Assembly: GCA_003577145.1 (NCBI GenBank)
Contig: QEUP01000008.1
Span: forward strand, 1-64,000
DNA: 64,000 bases
Origin: Acidobacteriota bacterium
GTDB taxonomy: Bacteria; Actinomycetota; Acidimicrobiia; Acidimicrobiales; Microtrichaceae
Direction: 5' to 3'
This document shows, piece by piece, positions 2,576 to 17,077 of the stretch (within the stretch, counting starts at the first letter, position 1; the number at the start of each line of letters is the position of its first letter). A program made the position numbers and the translations under genes. Under the pieces are notes generated by a model. It was given only the letters and a program-made list of their open reading frames with translations. It was not told where the DNA came from and searched no databases.

Positions 2576-3409
2576 TCAGGCCCGCCGCCACACCAAGGCC
2601 GGGGACCCGTCGCCGAGTGTCAGCTCGTCGCCCTCCACGCCGTAGGGCACCTCGGCAGTGAGCACCCCGACCACGGTTGCCTCGAGGTCCATGGCGGCCT
2701 CCTCACAGGCCATCTCGGTCAACCCCAGCGATTCGACCATGATGGCCTCCGGGCCCAGCTGCGCCGTGGCGCTCCCGGAGTTGCACCCGGTGAACACCGA
2801 GATGGCCGTCTCGGAGATCTCCAAGGTGGGTGCCGCCACACCGGCCGGAACGCTCGAAGCGGTCCCGCCGTCGATGACGGTCTCGAGCTCCCAGGTGCCC
2901 AGCAGGTCGTCGGCGCCGCCGCCGTCGGCCGGCTCAGCCGTCAAGACCATGCTCACCTCGCCGCCGTCGAGCCTCAGCTCGCTGTCCTGCAGCGACCAGA
3001 CGAGCCCCCCGGTGAGCCAGCCGGCGAGCCAGGCGTCCTGTTCGGCCAGCGCCTGTTCGCAGCCCATCAGGGTCGTGGCCAGCTCACCGGGAATGCTCAG
3101 CTCGTCGCCCACCAGCGTGTATGCGCCGGTCATCGAGTTGCACCCGGCGCTTGCTCTCAGGTCCCCGCCGGAGAACGCCAGCGTCACGGCGGTATCGGCC
3201 ACGAGCTCATGGCCGCTCACCGACTGCGACACGAACTCCTCCCCGTCCAGGGGGTCGGCATCGGTCGAGGTCACCGGCGCCTGGCCCGGCGTGGTCGTCG
3301 TGGTGGAGTCGGCTGCGTCGTCATCACCACAGCCCAGCACTGCCAGAGCCGTCACCACTGCCAGCAGGACCAGCCCGCGGCCGTAGCCATGATCTCGCTG
3401 ACTCGTCAT
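2576..3409 (-). CDS. META-domain (HslJ-like) lipoprotein, two tandem domains
   Basis: A 277-residue exported lipoprotein. ATG 3409 is chosen because GAGGAG lies just upstream and a signal peptide follows directly, ending at VLGC with Cys27, then an acidic/threonine linker (CGDDDAADSTTTTT). Two META-type repeats follow, each with the GCNSMTGAY or TGCNSGSAT cysteine motif and a later cysteine (MGCEQALAEQDAWL; EMACEEAAMDLE). META domains (HslJ family) are small envelope domains linked to heat or antibiotic stress in other bacteria. The exact role is unknown. The gene diverges from the MalT-type regulator at 3464, leaving only about 54 bases of shared promoter, so it may be a target of that regulator. 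Confidence 0.85.
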   Translation of the reverse strand: MTSQRDHGYGRGLVLLAVVTALAVLGCGDDDAADSTTTTTPGQAPVTSTDADPLDGEEFVSQSVSGHELVADTAVTLAFSGGDLRASAGCNSMTGAYTLVGDELSIPGELATTLMGCEQALAEQDAWLAGWLTGGLVWSLQDSELRLDGGEVSMVLTAEPADGGGADDLLGTWELETVIDGGTASSVPAGVAAPTLEISETAISVFTGCNSGSATAQLGPEAIMVESLGLTEMACEEAAMDLEATVVGVLTAEVPYGVEGDELTLGDGSPALVWRRA

Positions 3410-3463
3410 GCGTTCGGTCTCCTCGTCGCCGGTGCCCGCCAGGACACTAGTGCCGTGGTGGAC

Positions 3464-6154
3464 ATGAGCTGGCAGCAGCGCGGCCGACTCGGGCATGCTG
3501 CGCTGGTGGCCGGCGACCCCCCAGTCGAACCGACGTCGTTCCCGCCGTCGCGCTTCTCGGCCCCGCGCCAGGCGCTGTCACTACCGCGCCCGGCTGTCAT
3601 CGACGCGCTGACACGCGCCGTCGAAGAGCACGTCCTCACGCTGCTGGTGGCGCCCGGGGGGTCGGGCAAGACGACCGCCATGGCCTGGTGGGTTGCCGAA
3701 GCCGGGCAGCGGCCGGCGGTGTGGGCGCGCTTCGAACGCCAAGACGATGATCCGCTCAGCGTGGCCAACGTGTTGCTGGCGGCGCTGCGTCACCGCCTGC
3801 CCGGCGCGGGGAGACGCCTGGATCAGGTGCTCGCCATGGGTACAGCAGCCGAGGTGCACAGCCTGGCGGTGGCACTGGTGAACGACCTGGCCGAACATCG
3901 CGACATCGTGTTGGTCCTGGACGACCTGCACACGATCGACGCTCCCGAGAGCCTGGAGTTGCTCGGTGGCGTGCTCGACAACATGCCGACCGACGCACGC
4001 ATGATCGCCGCCAGCCGGACCGATCCAGCTCTCTCGCTGGCCCGTCGCAGGGTGCGCCGCGAGCTGGGCGAGCTGAGGGGAGCCGACCTGCGCCTCGACG
4101 CACCGGCAGTGCGCGCCGTGCTGGAGCAGGCGGGTGTCCACGGCGACGTATCCGCCCAGCAGATCCTCGACTACTCCGGGGGCTGGGCCGCGGCGGTGCA
4201 CCTCGCTGCTGTGCGAGCCGCCGGCGGTCACCGGCCACCGGAGCCGGCGGGGCCGGCGCGGGGCACCCGGAGCGAGATCAACGACTTCTTCACCGAGGAG
4301 GTGCTCGCGGACCTCCCTGCCGACCTGCGATCGTTCCTGCTGGAGACCTCGCTGCTGGGCGAGTTCGACGCGGAGATGTGCGCCGCGGTGACCGGGCGCG
4401 ACGACGCCGCGGCGTTGCTGGACGAGATCCTCCGCCGTGACCTCTTCGTGGGCCAGTTCGGCGACGAGCAGGCGGCGCTGCGCTACCACGACCTGTTCGC
4501 CGGCTTCCTACGGGAACGCCTCATCACCGAGCGTCCCCGCCCGGAGGTCGATGCTCTTCGCCGCCGCGCCGCGGCCTGCTCGCCGACGGGTGACGCGTTG
4601 CGCCTGCTGGTCGATGCCGGTGAGGTCGATGCTGCGGCAGAGCTGATCTCCGGGGCGGGACGGGCGCAGCTCGCAGGCAGCGGGGCCCACGTCCCGGATG
4701 CCTGGGTGAACCTGTTGCCTCCGGCCGCGAGACGCCGGCATCCCTGGGTCGGCTTGCTGGCCGGGCTCGGGCAGGTTCGCCGAGGCCAGATGCTCGGGGC
4801 CCGACACGAGCTGCAAGCTGCGCTCGATGAGCTTCGTGACGCCGGGGACCAGTTCGGCACGGTCGAAGCCGAGTTCGCCCTCGCCGAGGCGCGCATGGGC
4901 CTGGGCGACATGGCTGCCGCCGAGCAGCTCTTTGACGCGCTGCAAGCGCAGCCCCTGGGCCCCGACGAGCGGATCCGGTTGCTCAACACCCGCTTCTGGC
5001 ACAACTTCTTCGCCACCGACTGGAGCGCGGCCAGCTCTTCGCTGGAGGAAGCATTCGATCTGGCGTTCGGGGGCGCCAGCGACATCGGTCGCAAGGCGCT
5101 GGCCATGGCGCTCGGCACCGAGTCGCTCTTCGTCGACGCCGGACCGGCCTGGCTGCACGAGCAGTGCCGGCGCCTGGCAAGGGCGATCGGCGAGCCCGAC
5201 AGCCCCGCCGGCGCCTCCTTGAGAATGGCCGACGCCGCCGCAGCCTTCCTCGCCGGTGACATCGAAGGCTGCATGAGCACCCTCAGCAAAGCACTGACCG
5301 TATCCCGCGAGCACGGCGGCCTCGGCTGGCTGGACCTGGCCCTCGACCGGCTGCGCCTGGCCGCGGCCTCGGCGACAGGCGACCACGCCACAATCGCCGC
5401 GATCAGCGCGCAGGCGTCGAGATGCGCCGAGGCGTCCGACGTGCACCACCAGGAACGAGCCATGTACGCCTACGCTCAGGCCCGTTCGGCGCTGACCCGC
5501 CAACGTCCCGGCGAGCTGGCCGACATCCGGGACCACTGGCTGGGCGACGTCAGCGACAACGACCGTCCCGACGCGGCGGTGACGCTGATGGTGATCGACG
5601 CCCACATCGCCGGAGCCGCCGGTCGCGAGGACGAGGCAGCTCACCTGCTCGAGGCTGCCGCCGAGTTGCACCGCGCGGTCCGCTTCTCGTTGATGACGGG
5701 TCAGCCCCTGCTGGAGCTGGCCACGATGCAACTGGAGGCGGGTCACGAGCACGAGGCGCTCAACACCGCCCACGAGGCTCTCGGGACCGTCTCGGCCATG
5801 GACGCCCCGGGCCTGCTGCTACAAGACGGCCCCGGCGCTCACAAGACGCTGCTGGAGAGGTGCGCCCAAGCAGGTCTGCTGCGACAGGTGGTGACCGCGG
5901 CGCTGGCCTGGCGAGCTGCGCCGGGCCGGCCCAACCCGCTGGCTGTGCCCGGCACGGGCGCCGAGCTCAGCGTGCGGGAGGTCGAGGTGCTGCGCCGGGT
6001 TGTCGCCGGCGACTCGAACCGTGCCATCGCCGAGGCGCTGTTCATCAGCGAGCGCACCGTCAAGACCCACATGACCTCGTTGCTGCGCAAGCTGGGGGCG
6101 TCGTCGCGCACGCAGGCGGTGGCCAGGGTGCGTGAACTCGGCCTCGCCCTCTGA
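3464..6154 (+). CDS. MalT-like LuxR-family ATP-dependent transcriptional regulator
   Basis: About 896 residues from ATG 3464. GTGs at 3455 and 3458 are alternatives, and the frame is open further upstream but would overlap the divergent gene. It is a STAND-type regulator: Walker A LVAPGGSGKTT at residues 61-71, Walker B region DIVLVLDDLHTID, a winged-helix/arm region, a long helical TPR-like sensor domain (about 330-800), and a C-terminal LuxR HTH. The HTH reads LSVREVEVLRRVVAGDSNRAIAEALFISERTVKTH. Such proteins bind DNA after an inducer and ATP drive oligomerisation. The ligand is unknown. A damaged copy of its Walker-region DNA lies at 1850-1949. It probably controls itself and the divergent META lipoprotein. 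Confidence 0.88.
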   Translation: MSWQQRGRLGHAALVAGDPPVEPTSFPPSRFSAPRQALSLPRPAVIDALTRAVEEHVLTLLVAPGGSGKTTAMAWWVAEAGQRPAVWARFERQDDDPLSVANVLLAALRHRLPGAGRRLDQVLAMGTAAEVHSLAVALVNDLAEHRDIVLVLDDLHTIDAPESLELLGGVLDNMPTDARMIAASRTDPALSLARRRVRRELGELRGADLRLDAPAVRAVLEQAGVHGDVSAQQILDYSGGWAAAVHLAAVRAAGGHRPPEPAGPARGTRSEINDFFTEEVLADLPADLRSFLLETSLLGEFDAEMCAAVTGRDDAAALLDEILRRDLFVGQFGDEQAALRYHDLFAGFLRERLITERPRPEVDALRRRAAACSPTGDALRLLVDAGEVDAAAELISGAGRAQLAGSGAHVPDAWVNLLPPAARRRHPWVGLLAGLGQVRRGQMLGARHELQAALDELRDAGDQFGTVEAEFALAEARMGLGDMAAAEQLFDALQAQPLGPDERIRLLNTRFWHNFFATDWSAASSSLEEAFDLAFGGASDIGRKALAMALGTESLFVDAGPAWLHEQCRRLARAIGEPDSPAGASLRMADAAAAFLAGDIEGCMSTLSKALTVSREHGGLGWLDLALDRLRLAAASATGDHATIAAISAQASRCAEASDVHHQERAMYAYAQARSALTRQRPGELADIRDHWLGDVSDNDRPDAAVTLMVIDAHIAGAAGREDEAAHLLEAAAELHRAVRFSLMTGQPLLELATMQLEAGHEHEALNTAHEALGTVSAMDAPGLLLQDGPGAHKTLLERCAQAGLLRQVVTAALAWRAAPGRPNPLAVPGTGAELSVREVEVLRRVVAGDSNRAIAEALFISERTVKTHMTSLLRKLGASSRTQAVARVRELGLAL

Positions 6155-6306: not shown

Positions 6307-6891
6307 GTGTCACCAGCCCTTCGATCCAGCCGCAAACCCGCCGTCGAGTTCACCGGCACCCGCCGTCGGGTCCGGTCACGGTTGGCCGTGGCGGGCCTCG
6401 CGCTGCTCGTGGTCGCTGTCCTCACCGGCGGTTGCAGCGCAGATGACCCCTCCGCAGCATCCGAGGACGTACAAGACCAACAAGAGGAGCCCACCATGCA
6501 ACGCACCCCGGTCAACCCCTGGCAGTGGTCAGTGGATCTCGGCTTCAACCAAGGCGAGCTTGTCGAGAACAGCAGCCGCCAGCTCCTGCTCGCCGGCCAG
6601 TCAGCGATGAGCGCCGACGGCGCGCCGCAGCACGCGGGTGACATGGCCGCCCAGATCGAGCTGTCGCTCGACAACATGGAGGCAGTGCTCGCCGAGGCGG
6701 GAATGGACCTCTCCAACGTGGTCCGCCTCAACGTCTACACCACCGACGTCGACGCGGTGTTCGCCAACTACGGCCTGATCGCCGAGCGGCTCGGAACCGC
6801 CGGCGTCGCCCCGCCGGGATCGCTGCTGGGCGTCTCCCGTCTCGCCTATCCCGAGCTGATGGTCGAGCTCGAAGCCACCGCCGCGGGCTGA
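6307..6891 (+). CDS. RidA/YjgF-family protein with lipoprotein-type N-terminus
   Basis: The long form starts at GTG 6307 after GAGAGGAGCC and has 194 residues: a basic N-terminus, hydrophobic LALLVVAVLTGGC with a candidate lipobox cysteine at residue 43, then an acidic linker. A second start, ATG 6496, is also preceded by GAGGAGCCC and would give a 131-residue classical cytoplasmic RidA. The RidA core reads VDLGFNQGELVE, LLLAGQSAMSADGAPQHAGDMAAQ, VVRLNVYTTDVDAVF and ELMVELEATA. RidA proteins hydrolyse reactive enamine/imine intermediates, but the arginine normally near the C-terminal active site is not evident. Either two products are made from nested starts or the protein is exported. Confidence 0.8.
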   Translation: MSPALRSSRKPAVEFTGTRRRVRSRLAVAGLALLVVAVLTGGCSADDPSAASEDVQDQQEEPTMQRTPVNPWQWSVDLGFNQGELVENSSRQLLLAGQSAMSADGAPQHAGDMAAQIELSLDNMEAVLAEAGMDLSNVVRLNVYTTDVDAVFANYGLIAERLGTAGVAPPGSLLGVSRLAYPELMVELEATAAG

Positions 6892-6927: not shown

Positions 6928-7650
6928 TCACCGCCTGCTGTGCACCCCGCTACGCCGGTTCAGCTCGGGGCGAAGCATGGCGGGGTGCAACAGCTCGGCG
7001 TCGCCGCGACGGTAGAGCCGGGCGGGTCGTCCACCCTGCCGGGTGGTGCTCTGCCCGGTCGGCTCGACGAAACCGGGGGTGCCGGTCACCTTGCGATGGA
7101 AGTTGCGGGGGTCCAGCTCGGTACCCCATACGGCTTCGTACACCTGGCGCAGCTCGTTGATGGTGAACCCGGGTGCGCAGAACGCGGTGGCCAGCGGGGA
7201 GTACTCGAGCTTGGCTCGGGCCCGCTCCACCCCCTCTGACAGGATCCGGTGGTGATCGAAGGCCAGCCCGTTGGCGAGGAGGTCCCCGACCGGTAGCCAG
7301 GCGGCGGCCGCGGCGTCGGAGCCGGCGACCGGTGGCGCGGCTTCGGGTACCAGCGCGAGGTAGGCGACCGACACCACCCGCCCCCGGGGATCGCGCTCGG
7401 GGCTCCCGTAGGTGCCGAGTTGCTCGAGATGGATCCGCAGGTCGGCGACGCCGGTCTCCTCCACAAGCTCACGTTCGGCAGCGTCGAGCAGGTCCTCGTG
7501 CACGCCGACGAAGCCGCCGGGCAGCGCCAGGCGACCCTTGAAGGGCTGCGCGCCCCGTTCGATCACCAGTGCCTGCAACAAGTCGTCCCTGACGGTGAGG
7601 ACCACCAGGTCCACCGCGACCGGGAAGGGCGGCTGCGTCATCTCGCTCAT
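6928..7650 (-). CDS. Nudix-domain transcriptional regulator (NrtR type)
   Basis: A 240-residue protein with an N-terminal Nudix domain and a C-terminal winged helix, the NrtR architecture. The Nudix box is canonical: GGFVGVHEDLLDAAERELVE followed by ETGV. The C-terminal part (FTINELRQVYEAVWGTELDPRNFHRKV) is typical of the NrtR DNA-binding domain, and the tail is basic. NrtR proteins sense ADP-ribose and repress NAD-related genes. The frame opens at ATG 7662, but that codon lies inside a palindromic operator, so ATG 7650 or 7641 is more likely. It is divergent from the SPFH/NAD-kinase-like operon, which it probably represses along with itself. Confidence 0.85.
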   Translation of the reverse strand: MSEMTQPPFPVAVDLVVLTVRDDLLQALVIERGAQPFKGRLALPGGFVGVHEDLLDAAERELVEETGVADLRIHLEQLGTYGSPERDPRGRVVSVAYLALVPEAAPPVAGSDAAAAAWLPVGDLLANGLAFDHHRILSEGVERARAKLEYSPLATAFCAPGFTINELRQVYEAVWGTELDPRNFHRKVTGTPGFVEPTGQSTTRQGGRPARLYRRGDAELLHPAMLRPELNRRSGVHSRR

Positions 7651-7655
7651 CATAA

Positions 7656-7670
7656 TCGTCATCTTGACGA
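7656..7670. promoter_or_regulatory. palindromic operator 1 of the Nudix regulator
   Basis: TCGTCA-TCT-TGACGA is a perfect inverted repeat with 6-base arms. It matches the second site at 7689-7703 and lies 33 bp (about three helical turns) from it, centre to centre. It sits over the predicted -10 region of the leftward regulator gene (GATTAT at 7657-7652 on the minus strand). Confidence 0.75.
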
Positions 7671-7688
7671 GAAGTCTAGGTTAGTTTA

Positions 7689-7703
7689 TCGTCAGAGTGA
7701 CGA
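7689..7703. promoter_or_regulatory. palindromic operator 2 of the Nudix regulator
   Basis: TCGTCA-GAG-TGACGA has the same arms as operator 1. The flanks extend the symmetry (TTATCGTCA against TGACGACAA, 8 of 9 matching). It is 24 bases before the SPFH start codon and overlaps the likely -10 element GACAAT of the rightward operon, the expected place for a repressor. Confidence 0.75.
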
Positions 7704-7727
7704 CAATAGCTGTAGGAGGTCCTGGCC

Positions 7728-8765
7728 ATGGCCGACATCACCCGCCACCCGCTGCTCCATCACCTGAGGGCCGACACAACGACCTATGTCCGCCACCTCC
7801 GCAACGGGCGCGTCAAGCACGAGGGCGCGGGCCTGGCGTTCTGGTTCCGGCCCCGCACGGCGGCACTGGTCGCGGTCCCTGTCGACGACCGCGAGCAGGC
7901 ACTGCTGTTCCACGCCCGCACCGCCGACTTCCAGGACCTCACCGTGCAGGCGACGGTCAACTACCGCGTCGTCGACCCAGGCCTGGCCGCGACCAGGATC
8001 GACTTCGGCATCGCGCCCGAGACCGGGGCGTGGAACGCCACCCCGCTGGAGACCCTCGGCGGCCTGCTCACCGAGCTGGCCCAACAACCCGCCCTGGAGC
8101 AGATCGCCGGGATGGCGATGGCCGATGCGCTCACCAATGGTGTGGCGCGTGTACGCGACCGGGTGGCCGCAGCCCTCGCCGACGACACCCGGCTGGCGGA
8201 GAGGGGCCTGGCAGTGACCGACGTGCGGGTTGTCGCCCTCCGCACCGATGCCGAGGTCGAGCGGGCGCTGCAGACCGGCACCCGTGAGCAGGTGCAACAA
8301 GAAGCCGATCGGGCGACGTTCGAGCGGCGGGCGCTGGCGGTGGAGCGCGAGCGGGCGATCGCCGAGAACGAGCTGCAGAACAAGATCGAGCTGGCCCGCC
8401 GCGAGGAGGACCTGGTGACCCAGCAGGGCCAGAACGACCGTCGGCGCGCAACGGAGAAGGCAGCGGCCGAACAGATCGCCACCGAGGCAGCCGCCGCGCA
8501 GCGACGACTCATCGCCGACGCCACCGCCGACACGACCCGCCTGGTCGGCCAAGCCGAAGCCGACGCCGAGGCCGCCAAGCTGGCCGCCTACCGCGAGCTG
8601 GAGCAGGCCACGCTGCTCGGTCTGGCGCTGCGGGAGCTGGCCGGGAACCTCCCGAACATCACCAACCTCACGGTGACCCCCGACCTACTCACTCCGATCC
8701 TGGCGCGCTTCGCCCGGCCCGATCCCGAACCGGATCCCGGCGAGCCACAGGAGCAGGCGGCATGA
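7728..8765 (+). CDS. SPFH/Band-7 domain protein
   Basis: 345 residues from ATG 7728, with AGGAGGT nine bases upstream. The N-terminal two-thirds has the SPFH (stomatin/prohibitin/flotillin) pattern: [18 protein letters not shown], then [17 protein letters not shown], then [41 protein letters not shown] beginning a long charged coiled coil (about 195-275). A C-terminal helical region and a proline/aspartate tail follow. There is no N-terminal membrane segment, unlike most stomatins, so a soluble oligomer or peripheral scaffold is likely. It overlaps the next gene by ATGA, implying coupled translation and probably a shared complex or pathway. Confidence 0.82.
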
Positions 8766-9655
8766 GCCTCGAGCCGAGGGCCGTCCTCGTCCACCGGCGC
8801 TCCGAGTACGACGAGCTCCTGGCCCGCCACGGCACGCCTCAACAAGCCGCCTTCTTCCTGCAGGCCCGGGGTCACAGCCTCGACGAGGTCGTCGCCCGCC
8901 ACGAGACACTGCTGTCGGCCAGGCAGCTCGTCGCCGACGCAGTACCGGTTGATTGGCGCCGGGCCGAGGTCGAGCGCAGCGACTTGAGCCGGTTCATGTT
9001 CGGTCCCGAAGACATCGTGGTGGCAATCGGCCAGGACGGACTGGTGGCCAACGTCGCCAAGTACCTCACCGGCCAACCCGTGGTCGGGATCAACCCCGAG
9101 CCCGACCGCAACCCGGGCGTCCTGGTGCCGCACCCGCCCCTGGCAGCGCCGGCGCTTCTCGCCGCGGCCCGACACGAACCTCACGTCCAGGAGCGGACCA
9201 TGGTCAATGCCACCGCCGACGACGGCCAGTCGCTACGGGCGCTCAACGAGGTCTACATCGGCCACCCGACACACCAGTCGGCCCGCTACCTCCTGCGGCT
9301 CCCGGATGGGAGCCATGAGCGGCAGTCCTCCAGCGGCGTGCTGGCGGGAACCGGCACCGGCGCCACCGGCTGGCTCCGCTCGGCCTGGCAGGAGCGGCAC
9401 AGCAAACTCGCCCTCCCGCAGCCGACGGAGCCGGGCCTTTGCTGGTTCGTGCGGGAGGCCTGGCCCTCACCGCTCACCGGCACCAGCCTCACCGAGGGTG
9501 CCCTGGCCGAGGGCGAGGCCCTCGAGCTCGTGGCCGAATCCGACCAGCTGGTCTGCTTCGGTGACGGCATCGAAGCCGACGCGTTGGTGCTCAGCTGGGG
9601 CCAGCGGCTCAACGTCGCCAAGGCTCAGGTGAGCCTGCGCCTGGTCACTGCCTGA
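8762..9655 (+). CDS. NAD kinase-like (ATP-NAD kinase fold) protein
   Basis: 297 residues, starting at ATG 8762 within the SPFH stop. The NAD-kinase fold is visible: [19 protein letters not shown] corresponds to the nucleotide-binding GGDG loop (here GQDG), [13 protein letters not shown] to the GVNxGxLGFL segment, [15 protein letters not shown] to the NE-V motif, and [19 protein letters not shown] to the TPTGSTAY segment. The first glycine-rich motif and the TPTGST motif are altered, so kinase activity is uncertain; it may bind NAD or phosphorylate a related ligand. With an NrtR-type regulator upstream, a role in NAD or ADP-ribose metabolism is inferred. Confidence 0.78.
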
Positions 9656-9688: not shown

Positions 9689-11353
9689 TCAGGTGTCCTT
9701 GAGGCGGCGGTAGAGCCGGATGAGCTCGTTGGTGGACGAGTCGTGGTCGAGCTGGGGCTCCTCGGCACACAGCAACTGGGGCGCGATCTGTTTGGCCAGC
9801 ACCTTGCCGAGCTCCACCCCCCACTGGTCGAACGAGTCGATGCCCCAGACGGTGCCCTGGGTGAACACCGAGTGCTCGTAGAGGGCGACGAGGGTCCCGA
9901 GGCGGAACGGGGTGAGCACCTCGGCAAGGATCACGTTGGTGGGACGGTTCCCCTCCATCACCCGCTGCGGAACCACCGCCTCGGCGCTGCCCTCGGCGCG
10001 CACCTCGTCGGCGGTCTTGCCGAAGGCCAGAGCCTTGGCCTGGGCGAAGACGTTGGACGACAGCAGGTCGTGGTGCTCACCGAGCGGGTTGAGCGACTTG
10101 GCGAAGCCGATCAGATCGACGGGGATGACGGTGGTTCCCTGGTGGATGAGCTGGTAGAAGCTGTGCTGGCCGTTGGTGCCGGGCTCACCCCAGTAGACCG
10201 CGCCGGTGTCGGCTTGAACCGGCTCCCCGGTCAGGGTCACGTGCTTGCCGTTGGACTCCATCGTGAGCTGCTGGAGATAGGCGGGAAAGCGCTTGAGGTA
10301 CTGCTCGTAGGGCATGACCCCCACCGTCTGGCAGCCGAAGAAGTCCCGGTACCACACCGCCAGCAGCCCCATGATCACCGGCAGGTTCTGGCCGAAGGGA
10401 GCGGTGCGGAAGTGCTCGTCCATGGCGTGGAACCCCGCCAGCATCTCCGCGAACCTCTCCGGGCCGACGGCGATCATCGTGGACAGACCGATGGCCGAAT
10501 CCATCGAGTAGCGGCCCCCGACCCAGTCCCAGAACCCGAACATGTTGGAGCTGTCGATGCCGAACGCCTCGACCCGCTCGGCGCTGGTGGACACGGCCAC
10601 GAAGTGGCTCGCCACCGAATCCTCGCCCAGAGCCCGCACCACCCAGTCCCGCGCCGAGTGAGCGTTGGTCATGGTCTCGAGGGTCGAGAACGTCTTGGAC
10701 GAGATGATGAACAGGGTCTCAGCCGGGTCGAGCCCGCGGGTGGCCTCCACGAGATCGGTGGAATCGATGTTGGACACGAACCGCATGGCCAGGCTGCGGT
10801 CGCTGTAGTGACGCAGCGCCTCGTAGGCCATGACCGGGCCGAGGTCGGAGCCACCGATGCCGACGTTGATCACGTTGCGGATGCGCTTGCCGGTGTGACC
10901 GGTCCACTCACCGCGGCGCACCCGGTCGGCGAAGCTCCCCATGCGGGCGAGCACCTGATGGACCTCGGCGACCACGTCTGTCCCGTCGACGACGAGGGAG
11001 CTGCCCGCAGGCATCCGCAGCGCCACGTGCAACACGGCACGGTCCTCGGAGATGTTGATGTGCCTACCGGCGAACATGGCGTCGATGTGGCTGCGGAGGC
11101 CGGACTGCTCTGCCAGCTCCACCAGCAGCCGCATGGTCTCGTCGGTGACCCGGTTCTTCGAGTAGTCCAGGTGCAACCCGACCGCCTCGGCTCGCAGCCG
11201 CTCGCCCCGGGTGAGGTCTGCGGCGAACAGGTCGCGCAGGTGAGCCGAGGCGATGTCGGCGTGGTGGGCCCGCAGGGCCTCCCATGCAGGCCGCTGCACG
11301 AGCGGGGTCATGGTGCCGGGCGCCTCGTGGCCTGTGTCGGTCATGGCGTTCAT
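9689..11353 (-). CDS. pgi: glucose-6-phosphate isomerase
   Basis: A 554-residue cytoplasmic enzyme interconverting glucose 6-phosphate and fructose 6-phosphate in glycolysis and gluconeogenesis. Motifs include [36 protein letters not shown], the signature [20 protein letters not shown] and [16 protein letters not shown], with [14 protein letters not shown] at the C-terminus. Start ATG 11353 overlaps the transaldolase stop by four bases (ATGA), so translation is coupled and the longer frame to 11401 is not used. The family usually has about 550 residues, so it is full length. Pairing with transaldolase links glycolysis to the pentose phosphate pathway, as in other actinobacteria where the two may be fused. 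Confidence 0.96.
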
Positions 11354-12423
11354 GCGACTGCCTCGCTCTGGGCTGTCATGCGGCTGATCAGGTCGTCCCA
11401 CGATGACACGAACGCGGCTGCACCGTCGGCCTGCAGCTTGGCGGCGAGGGCGCCGACGTCGACCCCGGCTTCGCCGAAAGCCGCCAGCACCTCGTCGCAG
11501 CCGCCGCCGTCAGCGGACAGCACACCTTCGAGCCTGCCATGGTCGTGGAACGCTTCGAGGGTCGCGTCGGGCATGGTGTTGACCGTCAGCGGCGCCGCCA
11601 GCCCGGTCACATAGAGCGTGTCGGAGGCCTGGGGATCCTTGGTGCTGGTGCTGGCGAAGAGCAGCCGCTGCGGCCGGGCCCCCAGCCCTTCGAGGCGCTG
11701 CCACCGCGGCGAATCGAGCAGCCGGCGGTAGGCCCGGTAGGCGTCGGCCCCCACCGCCAGGCCGAGGCGGTCGCGCAGCTCTTCGGGCACCGCGTCTTTG
11801 ACCGCCACGTCCCAGCGGGACATGAACACCGACGCCACGCTGCCCACCGCCGGATCCGAGCCGTCGGCGAGCCGGCGCTCGATTCCTCTCATGTAGGCCT
11901 CGGCGGCGGCCACGTACTGCTCGGCGCTGAACAGCAGCGTGACGTTCACCGGCACCCCCGCCGCGATCGTCTCCTCGATTGCCGGCAGGCCCTCGGGAGT
12001 GCCGGGGATCTTGATGAACAGGTTGGGCCTGCCTGCGCGACCGTGCAGAGCCGAAGCCTCGGCGACGGTCGAGGAGGCGTCGTAGGCCAGCTTGGGCGAC
12101 ACCTCCAACGACACCCAGCCGTCGAGGCCGTCGCTGCGTTCGTGCTGGGCGAGGAACAGGTCGGCGGCTCGACGCAGGTCCTCCACCGCCAACTCGAAGA
12201 AGAGATCCTCCCCGGTGACACCGGCGCCCGCCTTGTCGGCGATGGCGTCGTCGTAGGCACCGGTGCCGATCGCGTGATCGTAGATGGACGGGTTGGAGGT
12301 CAAGCCGCTGACCGAGTACTCGTCCACGTAGCGCTGGATCTGCCCTTCGTCGAGCATCCTGCGGGTGATGTTGTCGAGCCACAGGCTCTGTCCGAGATCG
12401 TGCAGCTCGGCGGTTGCGGGCAT
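11350..12423 (-). CDS. tal: transaldolase
   Basis: A 357-residue transaldolase transferring the dihydroxyacetone unit in the non-oxidative pentose phosphate pathway. Motifs: [14 protein letters not shown] at the N-terminus, [35 protein letters not shown], the Schiff-base lysine in [18 protein letters not shown], and [12 protein letters not shown] 12423 has GAGGAGG upstream and agrees with the usual N-terminus; the frame to 12465 is not needed. It is the first gene of a two-gene operon with pgi, overlapping by four bases. Confidence 0.95.
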
Positions 12424-12542
12424 CGTCAGGCCTCCTCGGCAGTCCACGCCGCAGCGGCGGCCCACCTTCCTAGACGCTATCGGCCCCTCGGCACCGATGT
12501 TGAAGGACTTCAGCCCGCGACCGGCTCAGCCAGGGCCGCCGG

Positions 12543-13052
12543 CTAGGCCACGGGCAACGACGGTTCCTTGCGGACCTTCTCGTCCCAGCTCAACAGGTCG
12601 ATGCCCGCTTCGTTGCAGCGGTCGCGTGCATCGAGGATCGACTGCACATCCGCGTCCGAGAGCCGCTCCACCATGAGCGACAGCCCGTCGCAGTCGCTGA
12701 CGTGAGGAAGGATGGTGCGGACCAGCGCCACAGCCTCGGTGACGTCAGCGTCGCTCAACTCGTCCTGGCCGGCCAGCGCCACCAGCCGCTTGGCCGAGGC
12801 GATCGCGCCGTCGTGATCGACATAGAGGCGCCGCACGTAGTCGGTGCCGAAGGTGGGGACCAGCGACGGGTACATCGTCTCCTCCTCGTAGCGGAAGTGG
12901 GGCCCGGTGAGGGCGGCGATGTACAGCAGGCGATCCATCGCCTGCTCGCACGAGCGCTGCTCGAAGGCCTCGAGCAGCTCGAGCAGGGCATCACGGACCG
13001 CGCGATGTTCGTCACGGAAGATGGTGCTGAAACGGTCGGCAAGCAGGGTCAT
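12543..13052 (-). CDS. hemerythrin HHE-domain protein
   Basis: 169 residues, ATG 13052 with AGGAG upstream. It is a four-helix bundle with the di-iron ligand pattern His16 (DEHRAVRD), His52 with Glu56/57 (HFRYEEETMYP), His80 (VDHDGAI) and His117 with Asp120 (LPHVSDCD). HHE proteins bind O2 or NO at a non-haem di-iron site and are linked to oxygen, nitric oxide or iron handling. It is transcribed away from the ADP-ribosylglycohydrolase gene; inverted repeats lie in the shared promoter. Confidence 0.87.
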   Translation of the reverse strand: MTLLADRFSTIFRDEHRAVRDALLELLEAFEQRSCEQAMDRLLYIAALTGPHFRYEEETMYPSLVPTFGTDYVRRLYVDHDGAIASAKRLVALAGQDELSDADVTEAVALVRTILPHVSDCDGLSLMVERLSDADVQSILDARDRCNEAGIDLLSWDEKVRKEPSLPVA

Positions 13053-13076
13053 GATGATCTGGCTCCTAGGGAAAAT

Positions 13077-13170
13077 CCTCTTCGGTCGTCTGACGATCGC
13101 AGCACCGAAGAGGGGCTCGTGTCAATAGTTGATCAATCTTGTCACGAATTGCCCGTACATGTGATACGGG
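13077..13170. promoter_or_regulatory. divergent promoter region with two inverted repeats
   Basis: A perfect 10-base inverted repeat, CCTCTTCGGT (13077-13086) and ACCGAAGAGG (13104-13113), lies before the hemerythrin gene, where it could form a leader hairpin. A second, CCCGTA (13152-13157) and TACGGG (13165-13170), lies nearer the rightward gene. A TTGACA box (minus strand, 13125-13120) may be the hemerythrin -35, although no good -10 follows at the usual spacing. Confidence 0.4.
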
Positions 13171-13207
13171 TCGCCAAGGCGTGAGGATCGAGGTGGGCGA
13201 ACATCCA

Positions 13208-14308
13208 ATGGATGAAAGCGACCACCGAGGGCGAGAGGCACTGCGTGCGCGCGGGCTCCTGCCTGCGCTGGCGCCGTCGGTTCTGGTGGTGCCAGACGAG
13301 CGCGCCGACCTCCGCGCCGCCTACCGGGGAGCGCTCGTCGGCACCGCGATCGGCGACGCGCTGGGCCGGCCTGCCGAAGGGCGCTCGCCGCAACTGCTTG
13401 TTGAGCGCTACGGACGGTTGAGGGACTACCAGCCGTGGCGGGGTTGGGAGGGGGGGCCGAGGGGGACGATCACCGACGACACCCAGCTGACCATGTGCGT
13501 CGGCGAGTCGTTGCTGGCGGGCGACGGGCGGCTCGACCCTGTGGACCTGGCGCAACGCTTCGTCGACTGGTTTCCCCGAGGCCGCGGCAAGGGCCGCACC
13601 TGCACGGTGGCGCTGCTGTCGCTCATGGACGGCGTCCCGTGGTGGGAGGCGGGTGACGCCTCCGCGGGCAATGGTGCCGCCATGCGCGCGGCGCCTGTGG
13701 GGCTCGTCCACCTTCACGACACGACCGCCATGGTCGAGGACGCAGCGCTCTCAGCGGTGCTGACCCACGCCGACCCCATGGCAGTGGCCTCCGCGGCCGC
13801 CCACGCCTTCACCGTGGCCCACTTGGCGGCCACCGAGCCGGGACGGCTTGACACCGCCCAACTGATGGGTGAGCTGTCCCAGGTGCTGTCCACCGTCGAT
13901 GACCCCGGCTACCGGGAACGGGACTGGCAGACCCGTCCCGGCAAGACCGCCGAACCGGTTCGCCTCGCCGACCGCCTCGCCGAGGTGCCGATCCGCCTCG
14001 ACCACTCCCCGGTCGAGGCTTTCGACTGGTTCTACAACGGCGCCTTCGTGCTCGAATCGCTGCCCGCGGCGTTGTGGTGCTTCCTGCGCTCACCCGACGA
14101 ACCCGAGGAAGTGGTCGTGACCGCGGTGATGGGCGGTCACGACGCCGACACCGTCGCCTCCCTGGCGGGCGCCTACGTCGGCGCCTACCTGGGCGAGCCG
14201 GCGTTCCCCGAGCGCTGGCGGGGCGAGGACCTCGAGTTCGGGGACGAACTGCGCTCGATGGGCGACGGGCTGCTGGCGCTGGCGCTGGCGGGAAGGGAAC
14301 GGCCCTGA
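13208..14308 (+). CDS. ADP-ribosylglycohydrolase family protein (DraG/ARH)
   Basis: 366 residues from ATG 13208; a TTG at 13139 would add a poor extension. Hallmarks of the all-helical ARH fold: AYRGALVGTAIGDALGRPAEG, the metal motif GTITDDTQLTM, GNGAAMRAAPVGL, and GGHDADTVASLAGAYVGAYLGE near the C-terminus. The family removes ADP-ribose from proteins or small molecules using two Mg2+ ions held by these aspartates and threonines. The substrate is unknown. It stands alone between hemerythrin and a convergent glycosyltransferase. A truncated family member lies at 747-1121, and the NrtR/NAD-kinase-like module is 3.5 kb upstream, so an ADP-ribose link is possible. Confidence 0.88.
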   Translation: MDESDHRGREALRARGLLPALAPSVLVVPDERADLRAAYRGALVGTAIGDALGRPAEGRSPQLLVERYGRLRDYQPWRGWEGGPRGTITDDTQLTMCVGESLLAGDGRLDPVDLAQRFVDWFPRGRGKGRTCTVALLSLMDGVPWWEAGDASAGNGAAMRAAPVGLVHLHDTTAMVEDAALSAVLTHADPMAVASAAAHAFTVAHLAATEPGRLDTAQLMGELSQVLSTVDDPGYRERDWQTRPGKTAEPVRLADRLAEVPIRLDHSPVEAFDWFYNGAFVLESLPAALWCFLRSPDEPEEVVVTAVMGGHDADTVASLAGAYVGAYLGEPAFPERWRGEDLEFGDELRSMGDGLLALALAGRERP

Positions 14309-14352: not shown

Positions 14353-16650
14353 TCAGACCAGCGTCAGGTCGTAGACGGTGACGTTGCCGACGGTGGTGGC
14401 GGTGAAGTTGTCCTCCACCCAGGAGGCGATCTCACGGGCCGCCTCGCTGCCACCCCGGCTGTTGGCACCGGACAGACCGCTGGCGATGTAGTAGTGGATC
14501 TGTCCCTCGCTGACGTACTCCTGGAACTGGGCGAGCGTCGGTGAGGGATCGGAGCCGTTGAAGCCACCTATCGGCATGACCGGCAACTCGGTGGCGAGCT
14601 GATAGCTCGACGCGTTCTGCGAACCAGTCGTCGCCGCCACCCAGGTGAAGCCCGCGGCGTTCTCGCTGAGCAGAGCGACCATCTCGTCGCTCACCTCCAC
14701 GCCGTTGAGCAGGCCGCCCCGGCCACCTCCGGTGTCGCCACCCGCGCCGGGTCCGGGGACGTTCCCCCCCTGGCCGGGTACGCCTTGCCCGGGGTCAGCC
14801 GTGCCGGGAGCGCCCTGGCCGGGACCAGCCGCGCCCGGAACCTGCGCCGTGCCGGGAGCGCCCTGGCCGGGCGGCCCCGTGCCCGGAACCTGCGCCGTGC
14901 CGGGACCAACCTGGCCGGGACCAGCCTGGCCGGGACCAACCTGGCCGGGACCAACCTGGCCGGGACCAACCTGGCCGGGGTGGCCGGGACCAACCTGGCC
15001 GGGACCAACCTGGCCGGGGTGGCCGGGAGCGCCGCCACGTCCGGCCGTCTCCACGGTGGGACCTGCGTTCACCAGCGAACCCTCCCGCCCGTTGATCACC
15101 GTTTCGAGGGTCCAGGCCGCGGGCGCGGCGAGTGCCACGGCCACCGCGACGATCGCCGCCAGGCTTGTCAGGCGGGCTGCGGCCACGCGGTTCTCACCGG
15201 GCAGCACGGCACTCACCACGAAGCCGACGGCGCTCAGCACCGAGAGGAGCACGATCGTCTCAGCAAGCCACGGGTTCCAGGTGGGGGCCCGGCCGAGCAA
15301 CGCAGCTGCCCAGAGCCCGGTGAGCACGGTCAGTCCCGCCATGGTCGACTTCGCTCCCCAATGCGCCCGGTGAGCCCACAGCATCGTTGCGCCGATGCCG
15401 ACCAGTGCGCCGATGGCCGGTGCCAAAGCGACGGTGTAGTAGGCGTGGAAGATGCCCGCCATGAAGCTGAAGGTGAGCGCGGTGACCAGCAGCCATCCGC
15501 CCCAGATGACCAGCGCGGCACGCTGCAGGTCGGTGCGGGCGGCCCGCCGGGTCAGCCAGAAGCCCACGACGAGCAGGACCAGTGCGGCCGGGAGCAGCCA
15601 GGCGATCTGGCCTCCGATCTCGTTGTCGAACAGGCGGGTGATGCCGGTGGCACCCCAGATGCCGCCCCCCTGGCCGCCCTGAGCGCCTTGGAGACCCGGA
15701 CCTCCCCCGCCGACGCTGCCGGTCTCGTTGCCGGTGAGCCGGCCGAAGCCGTTGTAGCCGAAGGTGAGCTCGAGGAAGCTGTTGGTCTGCGAACCGCCGA
15801 TGTAAGGGCGGGAGGAAGCCGGCCACAGCTCTACGAGCGCGACCCACCACCCACCGGCCGCCACCATGGCAGCGAACGCCAGTCCCAGGTCGGCTATGCG
15901 CCGGCCGATCGCCGCCCTGCCCGCCAGGAGGTAGGCCAGCGCGAACGGGGGCACCACCAGCAGCACCTGGAGTTGTTTGGTGAGGAAGCCGAAGCCGATC
16001 GCGATGCCGGTGAGGATGAACCAGCGGGCGCGTCCGTCGTCGATGGCGCGCAACGCGGTGTAGGCGGCGACGGTGAGCAGCAGCGTGAGCAGCGCGTCCG
16101 GGTTGTTGAAACGGAACATGAGCGCGGCGACCGGGGTGAGCGCCATCACCGCACCCGCAAGCAACCCTGCAGCCGGGGTGAACCAACGGCGGACCGCGGC
16201 GTACAGGACCCCGACCGAGGCAACGCCCATCAGTGCCTGGGGAACGAGGATGCTCCAGGAGTTGAGCCCGAACACACGCACAGAGAGAGCCTGGGGCCAC
16301 AGGAACATCGGCGGTTTGTCGATGGTGATGCTGTTGGCCGCGTCCGACGAACCGAAAAGGAAGGCCTTCCAGCTCACCGAGCCTGCCTGGGCAGCAGCCG
16401 AGTAGAACGAGTTCGCCCAGCCCGAGGCCGCCAGGTTCCAGGTGTAGAGAACCAGCGTCCCAGCCAGCAGGGCGAGGAGGGACGGCCGCACCCAGCGGGG
16501 GTCGTCGGGCCGGCCCCGGAAGAAGCGGCGGAGCCGGCCGGGGCGGGGCGCACGCGGGGGCGGCGGCGACTCCCGGGGTTCGTGGCCCTCTGCGAGGTGG
16601 TCCTGCAGCGGCGGAGCGGTGGGTATGGCGGGCTGACCGGTGATGGTCAT
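14353..16650 (-). CDS. GT39-like integral membrane glycosyltransferase (PMT/ArnT/YkcB type)
   Basis: 765 residues; ATG 16650 with GGGAGG upstream is preferred over the frame opening at 16887. A proline-rich cytoplasmic N-terminus precedes about a dozen hydrophobic segments. The first loop contains ITIDKPPMFLWPQALSVRVFG, with the DKPP motif of GT39-type lipid-phosphate-sugar transferases. Then comes RFNNPDALLTLLLTVAAY, a glycine-rich loop (SVGGGGPGLQGAQGGQGGG), a Gly/Pro/Gln repeat (DNA 14755-15034) and a soluble C-terminal domain. Members use polyprenyl-phosphate sugars to glycosylate lipids or proteins at the outer face of the membrane. The acceptor is unknown. Confidence 0.88.
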   Translation of the reverse strand: MTITGQPAIPTAPPLQDHLAEGHEPRESPPPPRAPRPGRLRRFFRGRPDDPRWVRPSLLALLAGTLVLYTWNLAASGWANSFYSAAAQAGSVSWKAFLFGSSDAANSITIDKPPMFLWPQALSVRVFGLNSWSILVPQALMGVASVGVLYAAVRRWFTPAAGLLAGAVMALTPVAALMFRFNNPDALLTLLLTVAAYTALRAIDDGRARWFILTGIAIGFGFLTKQLQVLLVVPPFALAYLLAGRAAIGRRIADLGLAFAAMVAAGGWWVALVELWPASSRPYIGGSQTNSFLELTFGYNGFGRLTGNETGSVGGGGPGLQGAQGGQGGGIWGATGITRLFDNEIGGQIAWLLPAALVLLVVGFWLTRRAARTDLQRAALVIWGGWLLVTALTFSFMAGIFHAYYTVALAPAIGALVGIGATMLWAHRAHWGAKSTMAGLTVLTGLWAAALLGRAPTWNPWLAETIVLLSVLSAVGFVVSAVLPGENRVAAARLTSLAAIVAVAVALAAPAAWTLETVINGREGSLVNAGPTVETAGRGGAPGHPGQVGPGQVGPGHPGQVGPGQVGPGQVGPGQAGPGQVGPGTAQVPGTGPPGQGAPGTAQVPGAAGPGQGAPGTADPGQGVPGQGGNVPGPGAGGDTGGGRGGLLNGVEVSDEMVALLSENAAGFTWVAATTGSQNASSYQLATELPVMPIGGFNGSDPSPTLAQFQEYVSEGQIHYYIASGLSGANSRGGSEAAREIASWVEDNFTATTVGNVTVYDLTLV
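14755..15034 (-). repeat. 15-bp minisatellite encoding GPGQV repeats
   Basis: Within the glycosyltransferase gene, near-identical 15-base units (ggccgggaccaacct) run most regularly from about 14910 to 15030 and degenerate towards 14755. They encode tandem GPGQV/GPGHP/GPGTAQVP on the minus strand. The unit is a multiple of three, so copy changes keep the frame. It links the membrane part to the C-terminal domain. Confidence 0.85.
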
Positions 16651-17077
16651 GTCGGCCTCCCGTCCGCCAAGGCCTCGCCCGCCTTGCACCAGAGCCGCAG
16701 GCGGTCTTCGGTGAGTGGGCGACGCCGCACCGCCACCTCCGACGGAGGCGGCCGCGTCGCCAGAACGGTCGTCATGACGCGGTCCACGACTGCGAACATG
16801 ACACCGGTTTCTCAGACCGCTCTGGGGAAATCCTAAGAATCGGTTGGGAAGCGAGCTCACGGCGGGCTGTGTCCGGCGCCGGGTCACGGTGGCGTTCGAT
16901 CAACGCGATGAGTCGACGCTCAACCGGTTGTTCCGTGCCACGGTCGAACCCACTCAGGCGGAGGCGTCGGCGAGGACCACGGGGTCTGTGTCGGCGAGAG
17001 GTCCCCGGCGATCTTGGAGATCACGTGAACGCCCCGCAGCGCCACGGCCTCCTCGCGAACCACACCCGCGCGCGGAC
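16651..17077. other. 427-base gap without a supported gene
   Basis: This separates two leftward genes and should carry the glycosyltransferase promoter. A minus-strand peptide around 16970-17070 (VALRGVHVISKIAGDLSP, continuing as DPVVLADASA in another frame) reads like the tail of a frameshifted gene, but I cannot name it. Confidence 0.35.

What the first reader, a model, noticed from the sequence alone, without database searches (positions are those of the whole stretch)
6928..9655. Nudix regulator - SPFH - NAD-kinase-like module with twin operators
Seen: a Nudix/winged-helix protein divergent from an SPFH protein coupled (ATGA) to an NAD-kinase-fold protein, with two TCGTCA-n3-TGACGA palindromes 33 bp apart in the shared promoter. 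Known: NrtR regulators respond to ADP-ribose and control NAD metabolism; SPFH proteins form membrane scaffolds or rings. The NAD-kinase-like protein has altered glycine loops. Inference: the trio senses or handles NAD, NADP or ADP-ribose under a dedicated repressor, perhaps as an uncharacterised stress or defence module. An ADP-ribosylglycohydrolase lies 3.5 kb away.
Basis: partly seen in the sequence, partly recalled or inferred. Interest (0 to 1): 0.75.

Follow-up and report, generated by a model that had tools for sequence, protein, structure and literature searches.

The report
NrtR-type repressor controlling SPFH–kinase pair
Three neighbouring genes form a real, shared but uncharacterised unit in which a repressor of the ADP-ribose-sensing NrtR kind sits on the promoter of a ring-forming (SPFH) protein and its partner, a distant bacterial cousin of the human mitochondrial NAD kinase, so it may be a new arm of how bacteria respond to changes in NAD.

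Summary
A Nudix–winged-helix gene is divergent from an SPFH gene that overlaps (ATGA) a NAD-kinase-fold gene, with two TCGTCA-n3-TGACGA sites 33 bp apart. SPFH accompanies the kinase-like gene in 100 of 101 loci (the exception is a contig edge); the Nudix gene is divergently adjacent in 62 of 77 assessable genome loci. The trio also occurs on proteobacterial plasmids. In 63 of 63 Nudix-linked actinobacterial promoters the twin sites are 33–34 bp apart because site 1 contains the −35 (TTGACG) and site 2 the −10 (TATCGT in 62). In 6 of 13 genomes without an adjacent Nudix gene, a close homologue elsewhere carries such a site. Rare extra copies precede nadE in one genome and a SIR2-like gene in another. 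The Nudix protein keeps the two arginines that contact ADP-ribose in Shewanella NrtR; a gammaproteobacterial trio regulator matches that NrtR end to end (E 8e-96). The kinase-like protein is closest to human NADK2, but its GGDG loop is GQDG/GPDG throughout. Best reading: an NrtR-type repressor releases an SPFH scaffold plus NADK2-like kinase when NAD turnover raises ADP-ribose. Substrate, effector and scaffold role are untested. A defence role and the nearby ADP-ribosylglycohydrolase find no support.

The parts
6928..7662 (-). Nudix + winged-helix repressor of the NrtR type (true start probably an internal Met, e.g. 7641); Nudix box GX5EX7REUXEEXGU intact
   Evidence: PF00293, PF21906; SoNrtR 3gz5 E 3.2e-28; R36 and R93 align with SoNrtR R41 and R98
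7653..7673 (.). operator 1 (TAATCGTCATCTTGACGAGAA), contains the -35 hexamer TTGACG of the SPFH promoter (7664-7669)
   Evidence: conserved in 63 of 63 Nudix-linked promoters
7686..7706 (.). operator 2 (TTATCGTCAGAGTGACGACAA), contains the -10 hexamer TATCGT (7687-7692)
   Evidence: the only exact match of the extended pattern in the genome
7664..7692 (+). sigma-70-type promoter TTGACG-17-TATCGT of the SPFH-kinase operon, interlocked with the two operators
   Evidence: 9 of 12 consensus matches; 2 sites found in the stretch, shuffles give 0.2 on average; spacer 17 or 18 in all 63
7714..7719 (+). ribosome-binding site AGGAGG of the SPFH gene
   Evidence: Read directly from the sequence
7728..8765 (+). 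SPFH/Band_7 protein with a ~115-residue helix and no N-terminal transmembrane segment detected
8762..9655 (+). NAD-kinase-fold (NADK2-like) protein, GGDG loop changed to GQDG

Best explanation
The three genes are one regulatory and functional unit. The Nudix-winged-helix protein is an NrtR-type repressor. Bound to both operators it covers the -35 and -10 of the SPFH-kinase promoter (and probably its own promoter), so the pair is silent while NAD turnover is low. ADP-ribose, or a closely related NAD-derived diphosphate, released by NAD-consuming reactions binds the Nudix domain through Arg36 and Arg93 and frees the DNA. The SPFH protein then forms a ring or cage-like scaffold, and the co-translated NADK2-like protein works on or in it as a kinase of NAD(H) or a related nucleotide, making NADP(H) or a phosphorylated derivative to restore the pool. 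In Actinobacteria the Nudix box is intact, so the repressor could hydrolyse its own signal and reset. Shown by computation: the gene unit, the operator-promoter architecture, the NrtR relationship, the kinase and SPFH folds. Inferred: effector, direction of response, kinase activity and substrate, assembly, self-resetting.
For: SPFH with the kinase in 100 of 101 loci, exception a contig edge; in 396 Actinomycetota genomes the kinase is in 13 and SPFH in the same 13 plus one with a 238-residue match. Nudix divergently adjacent in 62 of 80 genome loci, 62 of 77 with a readable SPFH start; the three proteins' distance matrices correlate at 0.85-0.89 among 62 actinobacterial trios, window included, highest of 1000 permutations 0.15. 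Twin sites 33/34 bp apart with TTGACG in 63 of 63. In 6 of 13 genomes without an adjacent Nudix gene the best homologue elsewhere (68-70% identical) carries an operator-like site (15-16 of 18 positions) at its own start. The extended operator is in 9 of 13 kinase-bearing genomes and 3 of 383 others. Extra sites: 27 bp before nadE (G396) and a perfect twin before a SIR2-like gene (G398). The Methylomonas trio regulator matches SoNrtR over its whole length, E 7.8e-96. Arg36/Arg93 align with SoNrtR Arg41/Arg98, said to contact ADP-ribose (passages of PMC4666351), and are invariant in 25 aligned regulators. Kinase model: human NADK2 Z 24.6, rmsd 3.0 over 280 residues; LNE/VND motif in 99 of 101. 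SPFH model: HflC, erlin, prohibitin, flotillin, vault.
Against: The kinase-like family changes the second glycine of GGDG to Gln or Pro in 101 of 101 loci and fails Pfam's NAD_kinase cut-off, so it may not be a NAD kinase or a kinase at all. The genome has two other PF01513 matches over the cut-off, so NADP supply alone does not need this gene. The nadE link is clear in only 1 of 16 genomes and the SIR2 link in 1 of 14. 15 of 77 assessable loci lack an adjacent Nudix gene and 6 of these 15 lack the operators too. In 7 of the 13 genomes the best Nudix homologue is only 44-63% identical; most of these have no trio-type site, and one (G403) has two operator-like sites 44 bp apart at its own start although the SPFH promoter there has none. 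Proteobacterial trios use other palindromes, and the Treponema locus has no adjacent Nudix gene. Conservation of the hexamers could partly reflect the promoter rather than the repressor.
Confidence: 0.55

Rival explanations
1. Same regulatory wiring, but the NADK2-like protein is not an active kinase: it is a nucleotide-binding partner that reports NAD(P)(H) or ADP-ribose levels to the SPFH ring (pseudo-enzyme sensor).
For: Second GGDG glycine lost in 101 of 101 loci; SSG replaces the DG seen before the TPTGSTAY-type loop of bacterial NAD kinases; other PF01513 proteins already present in the genome.
Against: The Asp of the loop and the DG near the C-terminus are invariant in the 36-sequence cross-phylum alignment, the Asn-Glu/Asp pair is found in 99 of 101 loci, and human NADK2, which shares the SSG/TGTG...W stretch, is named an NAD kinase in its PDB entries.
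Confidence: 0.25
2. The pair is a membrane or envelope stress unit (SPFH microdomain) and the kinase acts on a lipid or other substrate of the wider kinase superfamily; the Nudix repressor reads NAD status only as a stress proxy.
For: Known SPFH proteins such as HflK/C, stomatin and flotillin organise membranes (PDB titles; otherwise recalled); modest hydropathy maxima of 1.4-1.8 at residues ~146-155 in 7 of 97 SPFH sequences.
Against: No N-terminal transmembrane segment: the model's first strand starts at residue 3 and only 2 of 97 sequences pass 1.6 in a 19-residue hydropathy window, neither at the N-terminus. All 50 fold matches listed for the kinase model are annotated as NAD(H) kinases or putative kinases of that family.
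Confidence: 0.1
3. An anti-phage or other conflict module that responds to NAD depletion.
For: Patchy distribution (13 of 396 Actinomycetota), carriage on records of several phyla in the plasmid collection, a TerY/PP2C neighbourhood in Moraxella and a terZ gene about 7.6 kb from the Proteus copy, an operator twin before a SIR2-like gene in one genome.
Against: Only weak PADLOC hits for the trio proteins (best E 0.0081); 101 neighbouring ORFs of 30 loci give 10 PADLOC matches at E <= 1e-10 in 4 families (mad3, AriA, mad8, mad2) and mostly metabolic and transport families among the 25 commonest of 147 Pfam families (AAA_21 in 4); no background set was compared. No match in 50,697 phage records; one match in IMG/VR, on a 257-kb contig.
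Confidence: 0.07

Closest known systems
NrtR family of Nudix-related repressors (SoNrtR 3gz5/3gz6; MsNrtR)
   Same: Nudix plus winged helix; divergent, probably self-controlled promoter; palindromic operator; two ADP-ribose-contacting arginines; full-length match of a gammaproteobacterial trio regulator to SoNrtR
   Different: Controls an SPFH-kinase operon rather than NAD biosynthesis genes; intact Nudix box in the actinobacterial branch, whereas MsNrtR is reported to have a less conserved box and no detectable hydrolase activity (passages of PMC6800001); operator unlike the mycobacterial GTTTTCGA-N7-TCGAAAAC
Human mitochondrial NAD kinase 2 (NADK2, 7r4j/7n29)
   Same: Best sequence-profile (E 4.2e-20) and fold match (Z 24.6); shares the SSG-x4-TGTG-x3-W stretch and an alignable N-terminal region
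   Different: 23% identity; GGDG loop is GQDG/GPDG; encoded behind an SPFH gene in 100 of 101 loci
SPFH ring/cage proteins (HflK/HflC, erlin, prohibitin, flotillin, major vault protein)
   Same: SPFH domain followed by a long helix
   Different: No N-terminal membrane anchor detected; paired with a NAD-kinase-fold protein instead of, for example, the FtsH protease or an NfeD partner (PDB titles)

Membership tests
NrtR repressors | N-terminal Nudix domain and C-terminal NrtR winged helix | tested here: met
   PF00293 and PF21906 above cut-off
NrtR repressors | ADP-ribose-contacting arginines (SoNrtR R41, R98) | tested here: met
   R36 and R93 by alignment (a chain offset of 3 follows); invariant in 25 of 25; role of the residues from passages of PMC4666351
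NrtR repressors | palindromic operator at own promoter and target | tested here: met
   Sequence evidence only: 63 of 63 Nudix-linked promoters; in trans in 6 of 13 genomes
NrtR repressors | targets are NAD-metabolism genes | tested here: inconclusive
   nadE in 1 of 16 genomes, SIR2-like in 1 of 14; the main target is the SPFH-kinase pair
NrtR repressors | impaired Nudix catalytic box (described for NAD-metabolism NrtRs in PMC4666351; typical, not strictly defining) | tested here: not met
   Box intact here, in 61 of 62 adjacent regulators of the genome loci and 63 of 71 adjacent ones in all; the six alpha-, beta- and gammaproteobacterial ones are impaired
NrtR repressors | NCBIfam equivalog NF050029 (NtrR) | tested here: not met
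   137 bits against a cut-off of 400
NrtR repressors | ADP-ribose or NAD as effector | not testable with these tools
   needs binding assays
NAD kinase (PF01513) | Pfam gathering score | tested here: not met
   13.7 against 25.5 bits
NAD kinase (PF01513) | NAD kinase fold | tested here: met
   Model pLDDT 93.9; NADK2 Z 24.6, rmsd 3.0, 280 aligned
NAD kinase (PF01513) | GGDG loop | tested here: not met
   GQDG or GPDG in 101 of 101 loci; the Asp is kept
NAD kinase (PF01513) | kinase activity on NAD(H) | not testable with these tools
   needs enzyme assay
SPFH/Band_7 | SPFH domain above Pfam cut-off | tested here: met
   46.8 against 23.6 bits; fold
SPFH/Band_7 | ring or cage assembly | not testable with these tools
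   monomer model only
anti-phage defence system | matches known defence models (PADLOC-DB of 2023) | tested here: not met
   best trio hit E 0.0081
anti-phage defence system | lies in defence islands | tested here: inconclusive
   no recurrent defence family among 101 neighbouring ORFs of 30 loci, but no background set was compared

The most novel reading that the evidence does not exclude
The unit makes an inducible, soluble SPFH cage (vault- or HflK/C-like) that holds or caps an NADK2-like kinase acting on NAD or directly on ADP-ribose, switched on by ADP-ribose through a repressor that hydrolyses its own signal: a self-resetting bacterial NAD-damage response built around a cage-bound kinase.
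Probability: 0.15. Interest if true: 0.88.

Novelty: new variant of a known kind. Interest (0 to 1): 0.62.

Why it matters
It ties SPFH scaffolds, whose bacterial roles are often unknown (recalled), to NAD(P) chemistry through a repressor family with a known ligand. It gives bacterial relatives of human NADK2 a genetic context, and predicts an exact operator-promoter architecture and effector that can be tested with one EMSA and one enzyme assay, for instance in Rhizobium etli CFN 42, which carries the trio. In the searched open-access library no paper holds 'SPFH' with 'NAD kinase' or with 'NrtR', nor 'NrtR' with 'stomatin'. Two papers hold 'NrtR' with 'NAD kinase' (listing only, not opened). 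Four hold 'SPFH', 'Nudix' and 'operon'; the passages seen in three of them do not describe this unit, and the fourth, on T4-like phages, was not opened. The founding NrtR paper (Rodionov 2008) is not held, so earlier notice there cannot be excluded.

Tried and rejected
Defence reading: PADLOC on the trio and on 101 neighbouring ORFs of 30 loci gave nothing convincing; no background set was compared. ADP-ribosylglycohydrolase as part of the unit: no exact operator there, and not among the commonest neighbour families (25 of 147 shown). Phage origin: no phage record, one IMG/VR contig. E. coli carriage of the Proteus-type DNA: none found by DNA similarity. All-against-all ORF clustering of the loci was confounded by overlapping reading frames in GC-rich DNA; it showed no gene beyond the trio shared across most loci but is weak evidence. 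Operator before nadE in other genomes: among 20 nadE-type loci in 16 genomes only one clear site (17 of 18 positions, G396); three f32-family genomes have 12-13 of 18 at a similar place, near the noise level of 10-12, and are not counted. Two further perfect palindromes in G023 precede ORFs without any Pfam family; unexplained. One extra site in G407 lies inside an ORF and is treated as chance. The two single 12-base-pattern sites elsewhere in the own genome lie in a permease ORF and in an unclear region; treated as chance. Of the three operator-bearing genomes without the kinase, two sites are inside ORFs and one is intergenic beside a membrane-protein ORF. The reversed control pattern matched once in 396 genomes (G067). 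In the fold lists, families not named are not excluded.

Limits of the counts: the 80 loci are the best 80 of 86 relatives and were found by exact peptide patterns of the kinase, so they favour close relatives; some come from the same genus or genome (for example L049 and L050). The operator scan picked the best two matches to a consensus in 170 bp upstream of SPFH, so it leans towards that consensus; loci with less than 120 bp upstream were skipped. Loci without the sites (best scores 8-11 of 18, against 14-18) serve as the internal control. Genome frequencies are for one phylum only. Two of the 57 'plasmid' records are 4-Mb Proteus records.
Full report
What is there. The window holds a Nudix-winged-helix gene (6928-7662, minus), a divergent SPFH/Band_7 gene (7728-8765, plus) and a NAD-kinase-fold gene (8762-9655, plus) that overlaps the SPFH stop as ATGA. 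The Nudix start is probably an internal Met such as 7641, so that operator 1 lies just outside the gene; this is a guess from where homologues align. Two exact TCGTCA-n3-TGACGA palindromes, 33 bp apart, occupy the shared promoter. Of four such sites in the 4.05-Mb genome two are here, and the reversed control pattern has none.

Is it a unit? A scan of GTDB genomes with the kinase protein kept 80 loci of 86 relatives, mostly Actinobacteria. Together with plasmid and further genome loci, 101 kinase loci were examined (L005-L106 without the window's own L094): 100 have the SPFH gene and the one exception starts at a contig edge; in 77 of the 100 the genes overlap or are at most 3 bases apart. In a sample of 396 Actinomycetota genomes the kinase occurs in 13 and SPFH in 14, the same 13 plus one with a match of 238 residues. 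The Nudix gene is divergently adjacent in 62 of 80 genome loci, or 62 of the 77 whose SPFH start is on the contig, and in 71 of all 101 loci, some of which hold little upstream DNA. Distance matrices of the three proteins correlate (0.85-0.89 in 62 actinobacterial trios, window included; highest of 1000 permutations 0.15). The complete trio is annotated on plasmids of Rhizobium, Moraxella, Providencia and Methylomonas. A Treponema plasmid has the pair with a Nudix gene about 4 kb away, and a Streptomyces and a Roseomonas plasmid have it without an adjacent Nudix gene. The family is sparse: 57 of 72,556 plasmid records, 13 of 396 genomes, and neither of the two other genomes of the window's own family in that sample.

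Operator and promoter. In the window plus all 62 Nudix-linked genome loci the best two operator matches upstream of SPFH are 34 bp (54) or 33 bp (9) apart. Site 1 always carries TTGACG (63 of 63) and the last base of its spacer is always T, as that -35 hexamer needs, while the spacer of site 2 is variable. Site 2 carries TATCGT in 62 of 63. The distance between the hexamers is then 17 or 18 bp. A separate consensus scan finds the same promoter in the window, TTGACG-17-TATCGT; two promoter-like sites were found in the stretch against 0.2 expected. So the fixed spacing has a simple cause: each operator overlaps one promoter hexamer, and a dimer on each would shut out RNA polymerase (inference). 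The second site of that scan is a promoter-like pair for the Nudix gene with the core of operator 1 in its spacer, which would make it self-repressed; this is only a consensus match. Among 15 genome loci without an adjacent Nudix gene but with a readable promoter, 9 keep the twin arrangement and 6 do not. In 13 genomes without an adjacent Nudix gene a homologue exists elsewhere in all 13; in six it is 68-70% identical and an operator-like site (15-16 of 18 positions) stands at its own start, as a twin 34 bp apart in two. In the other seven the best homologue is 44-63% identical. Of these, G403 has two operator-like sites 44 bp apart at the Nudix start although its SPFH promoter has none, and G397 has one weak site (14 of 18). 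Proteobacterial trios carry other repeated palindromes in the same place (for example AAGTTGTACAGTACAACTT and a partner in Cupriavidus), as expected if operator and regulator diverged together.

Regulon. The extended pattern occurs in 13 of 14 chosen genomes, with 0 control matches. Across 396 genomes it occurs in 9 of the 13 that carry the kinase and in 3 of the 383 that do not (one control match in all); of those three, two sites are inside ORFs and one is intergenic beside a membrane-protein ORF. One more, in G407, lies inside an ORF. The nadE link is not general: of 20 nadE-type loci in 16 genomes only this one has a clear site.

The regulator. Pfam recognises both domains. Its three solved relatives at E <= 1e-20 are a MutT/nudix protein (2fml), Bacteroides AraR (5bs6) and Shewanella NrtR (3gz5). 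According to passages of PMC4666351, SoNrtR Arg41 and Arg98 contact ADP-ribose and the second is a glycine in the arabinose sensor AraR. They align with Arg36 and Arg93 here, both invariant in 25 aligned trio regulators. The Methylomonas plasmid trio regulator matches SoNrtR from end to end at E 7.8e-96, so at least some gammaproteobacterial trios are run by a close NrtR relative. The Nudix box is complete in 61 of 62 adjacent regulators of the genome loci and impaired in the six alpha-, beta- and gammaproteobacterial ones. MsNrtR, by contrast, is reported to have no detectable hydrolase activity (passages of PMC6800001). Hydrolysis by the actinobacterial regulators is therefore possible but unproved. 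Nudix-winged-helix paralogues in the same genomes lie next to an ADP-ribosylglycohydrolase (L131), a NADAR protein (L129) or a PNP-family gene (L123, L126), which fits ADP-ribose-related duties of the wider group.

The kinase-like protein. Profile search gives human NADK2 at 4.2e-20, ahead of bacterial NAD kinases at 1.4e-4 to 1.9e-6. The model (pLDDT 93.9) matches NADK2 at Z 24.6, rmsd 3.0 over 280 residues, with bacterial NAD kinases at Z about 20-22. It shares with NADK2 the SSG-x4-TGTG-x3-W stretch where bacterial enzymes have a DG followed by a TPTGSTAY-like loop. The GGDG loop reads GQDG or GPDG in 101 of 101 loci, its Asp kept; LNE or VND is found in 99 of 101. The importance of these motifs for catalysis is recalled, not tested. 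It fails the Pfam NAD_kinase cut-off, so I do not file it as a NAD kinase; it has that fold and may work like one. The genome has two other PF01513 matches over the cut-off.

The SPFH protein. The model (pLDDT 84) has strands from residue 3 and a helix of about 115 residues. Its best fold matches are HflC/HflK, erlin, prohibitin, flotillin, stomatin and the major vault protein. Its C-terminal part is of low confidence, and Z values near 13 for a long helix should be read with care. Only 2 of 97 sequences exceed 1.6 in a 19-residue hydropathy window, neither at the N-terminus, so a soluble or peripheral assembly is more likely than an anchored one (inference).

Verdict. The finding is a new variant of a known kind: NrtR-type control of a pair not found linked to it in the searched library, an SPFH scaffold with an NADK2-like protein.

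Noticed in passing
9689-12465: Phosphoglucose isomerase and transaldolase genes (minus strand) lie just behind the kinase-like gene; a transaldolase is also annotated close behind the pair on the Treponema plasmid (L086:9741-10460). Two cases only, no operator seen there.
   Followed up: partly
12543-14308: Hemerythrin-domain protein and divergent ADP-ribosylglycohydrolase (PF03747 1.2e-70).
   Followed up: partly
1637-2000 and 3406-3768: Short stretches of the LuxR-type AAA regulator at 3209-6154 (words like MAWWVAEAGQRPA) also appear near 1700-1900, as if a fragment were duplicated.
   Followed up: no
14353-16887: PMT-type glycosyltransferase with a long low-complexity GQVGPG/GQAGPG collagen-like insert.
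   Followed up: no
6307-6891: L-PSP/Rid-type protein (PF01042 8.5e-17) with what looks like a lipoprotein-type N-terminus (Cys after a hydrophobic stretch); tail to tail with the Nudix gene.
   Followed up: no
L142:1501-1521 and L150:1501-1521: Two perfect trio-type palindromes 6.4 kb apart in genome G023 precede ORFs without Pfam families.
   Followed up: partly
L112: One IMG/VR contig of 257 kb encodes a 40%-identical kinase-like protein; its neighbourhood was not read.
   Followed up: no
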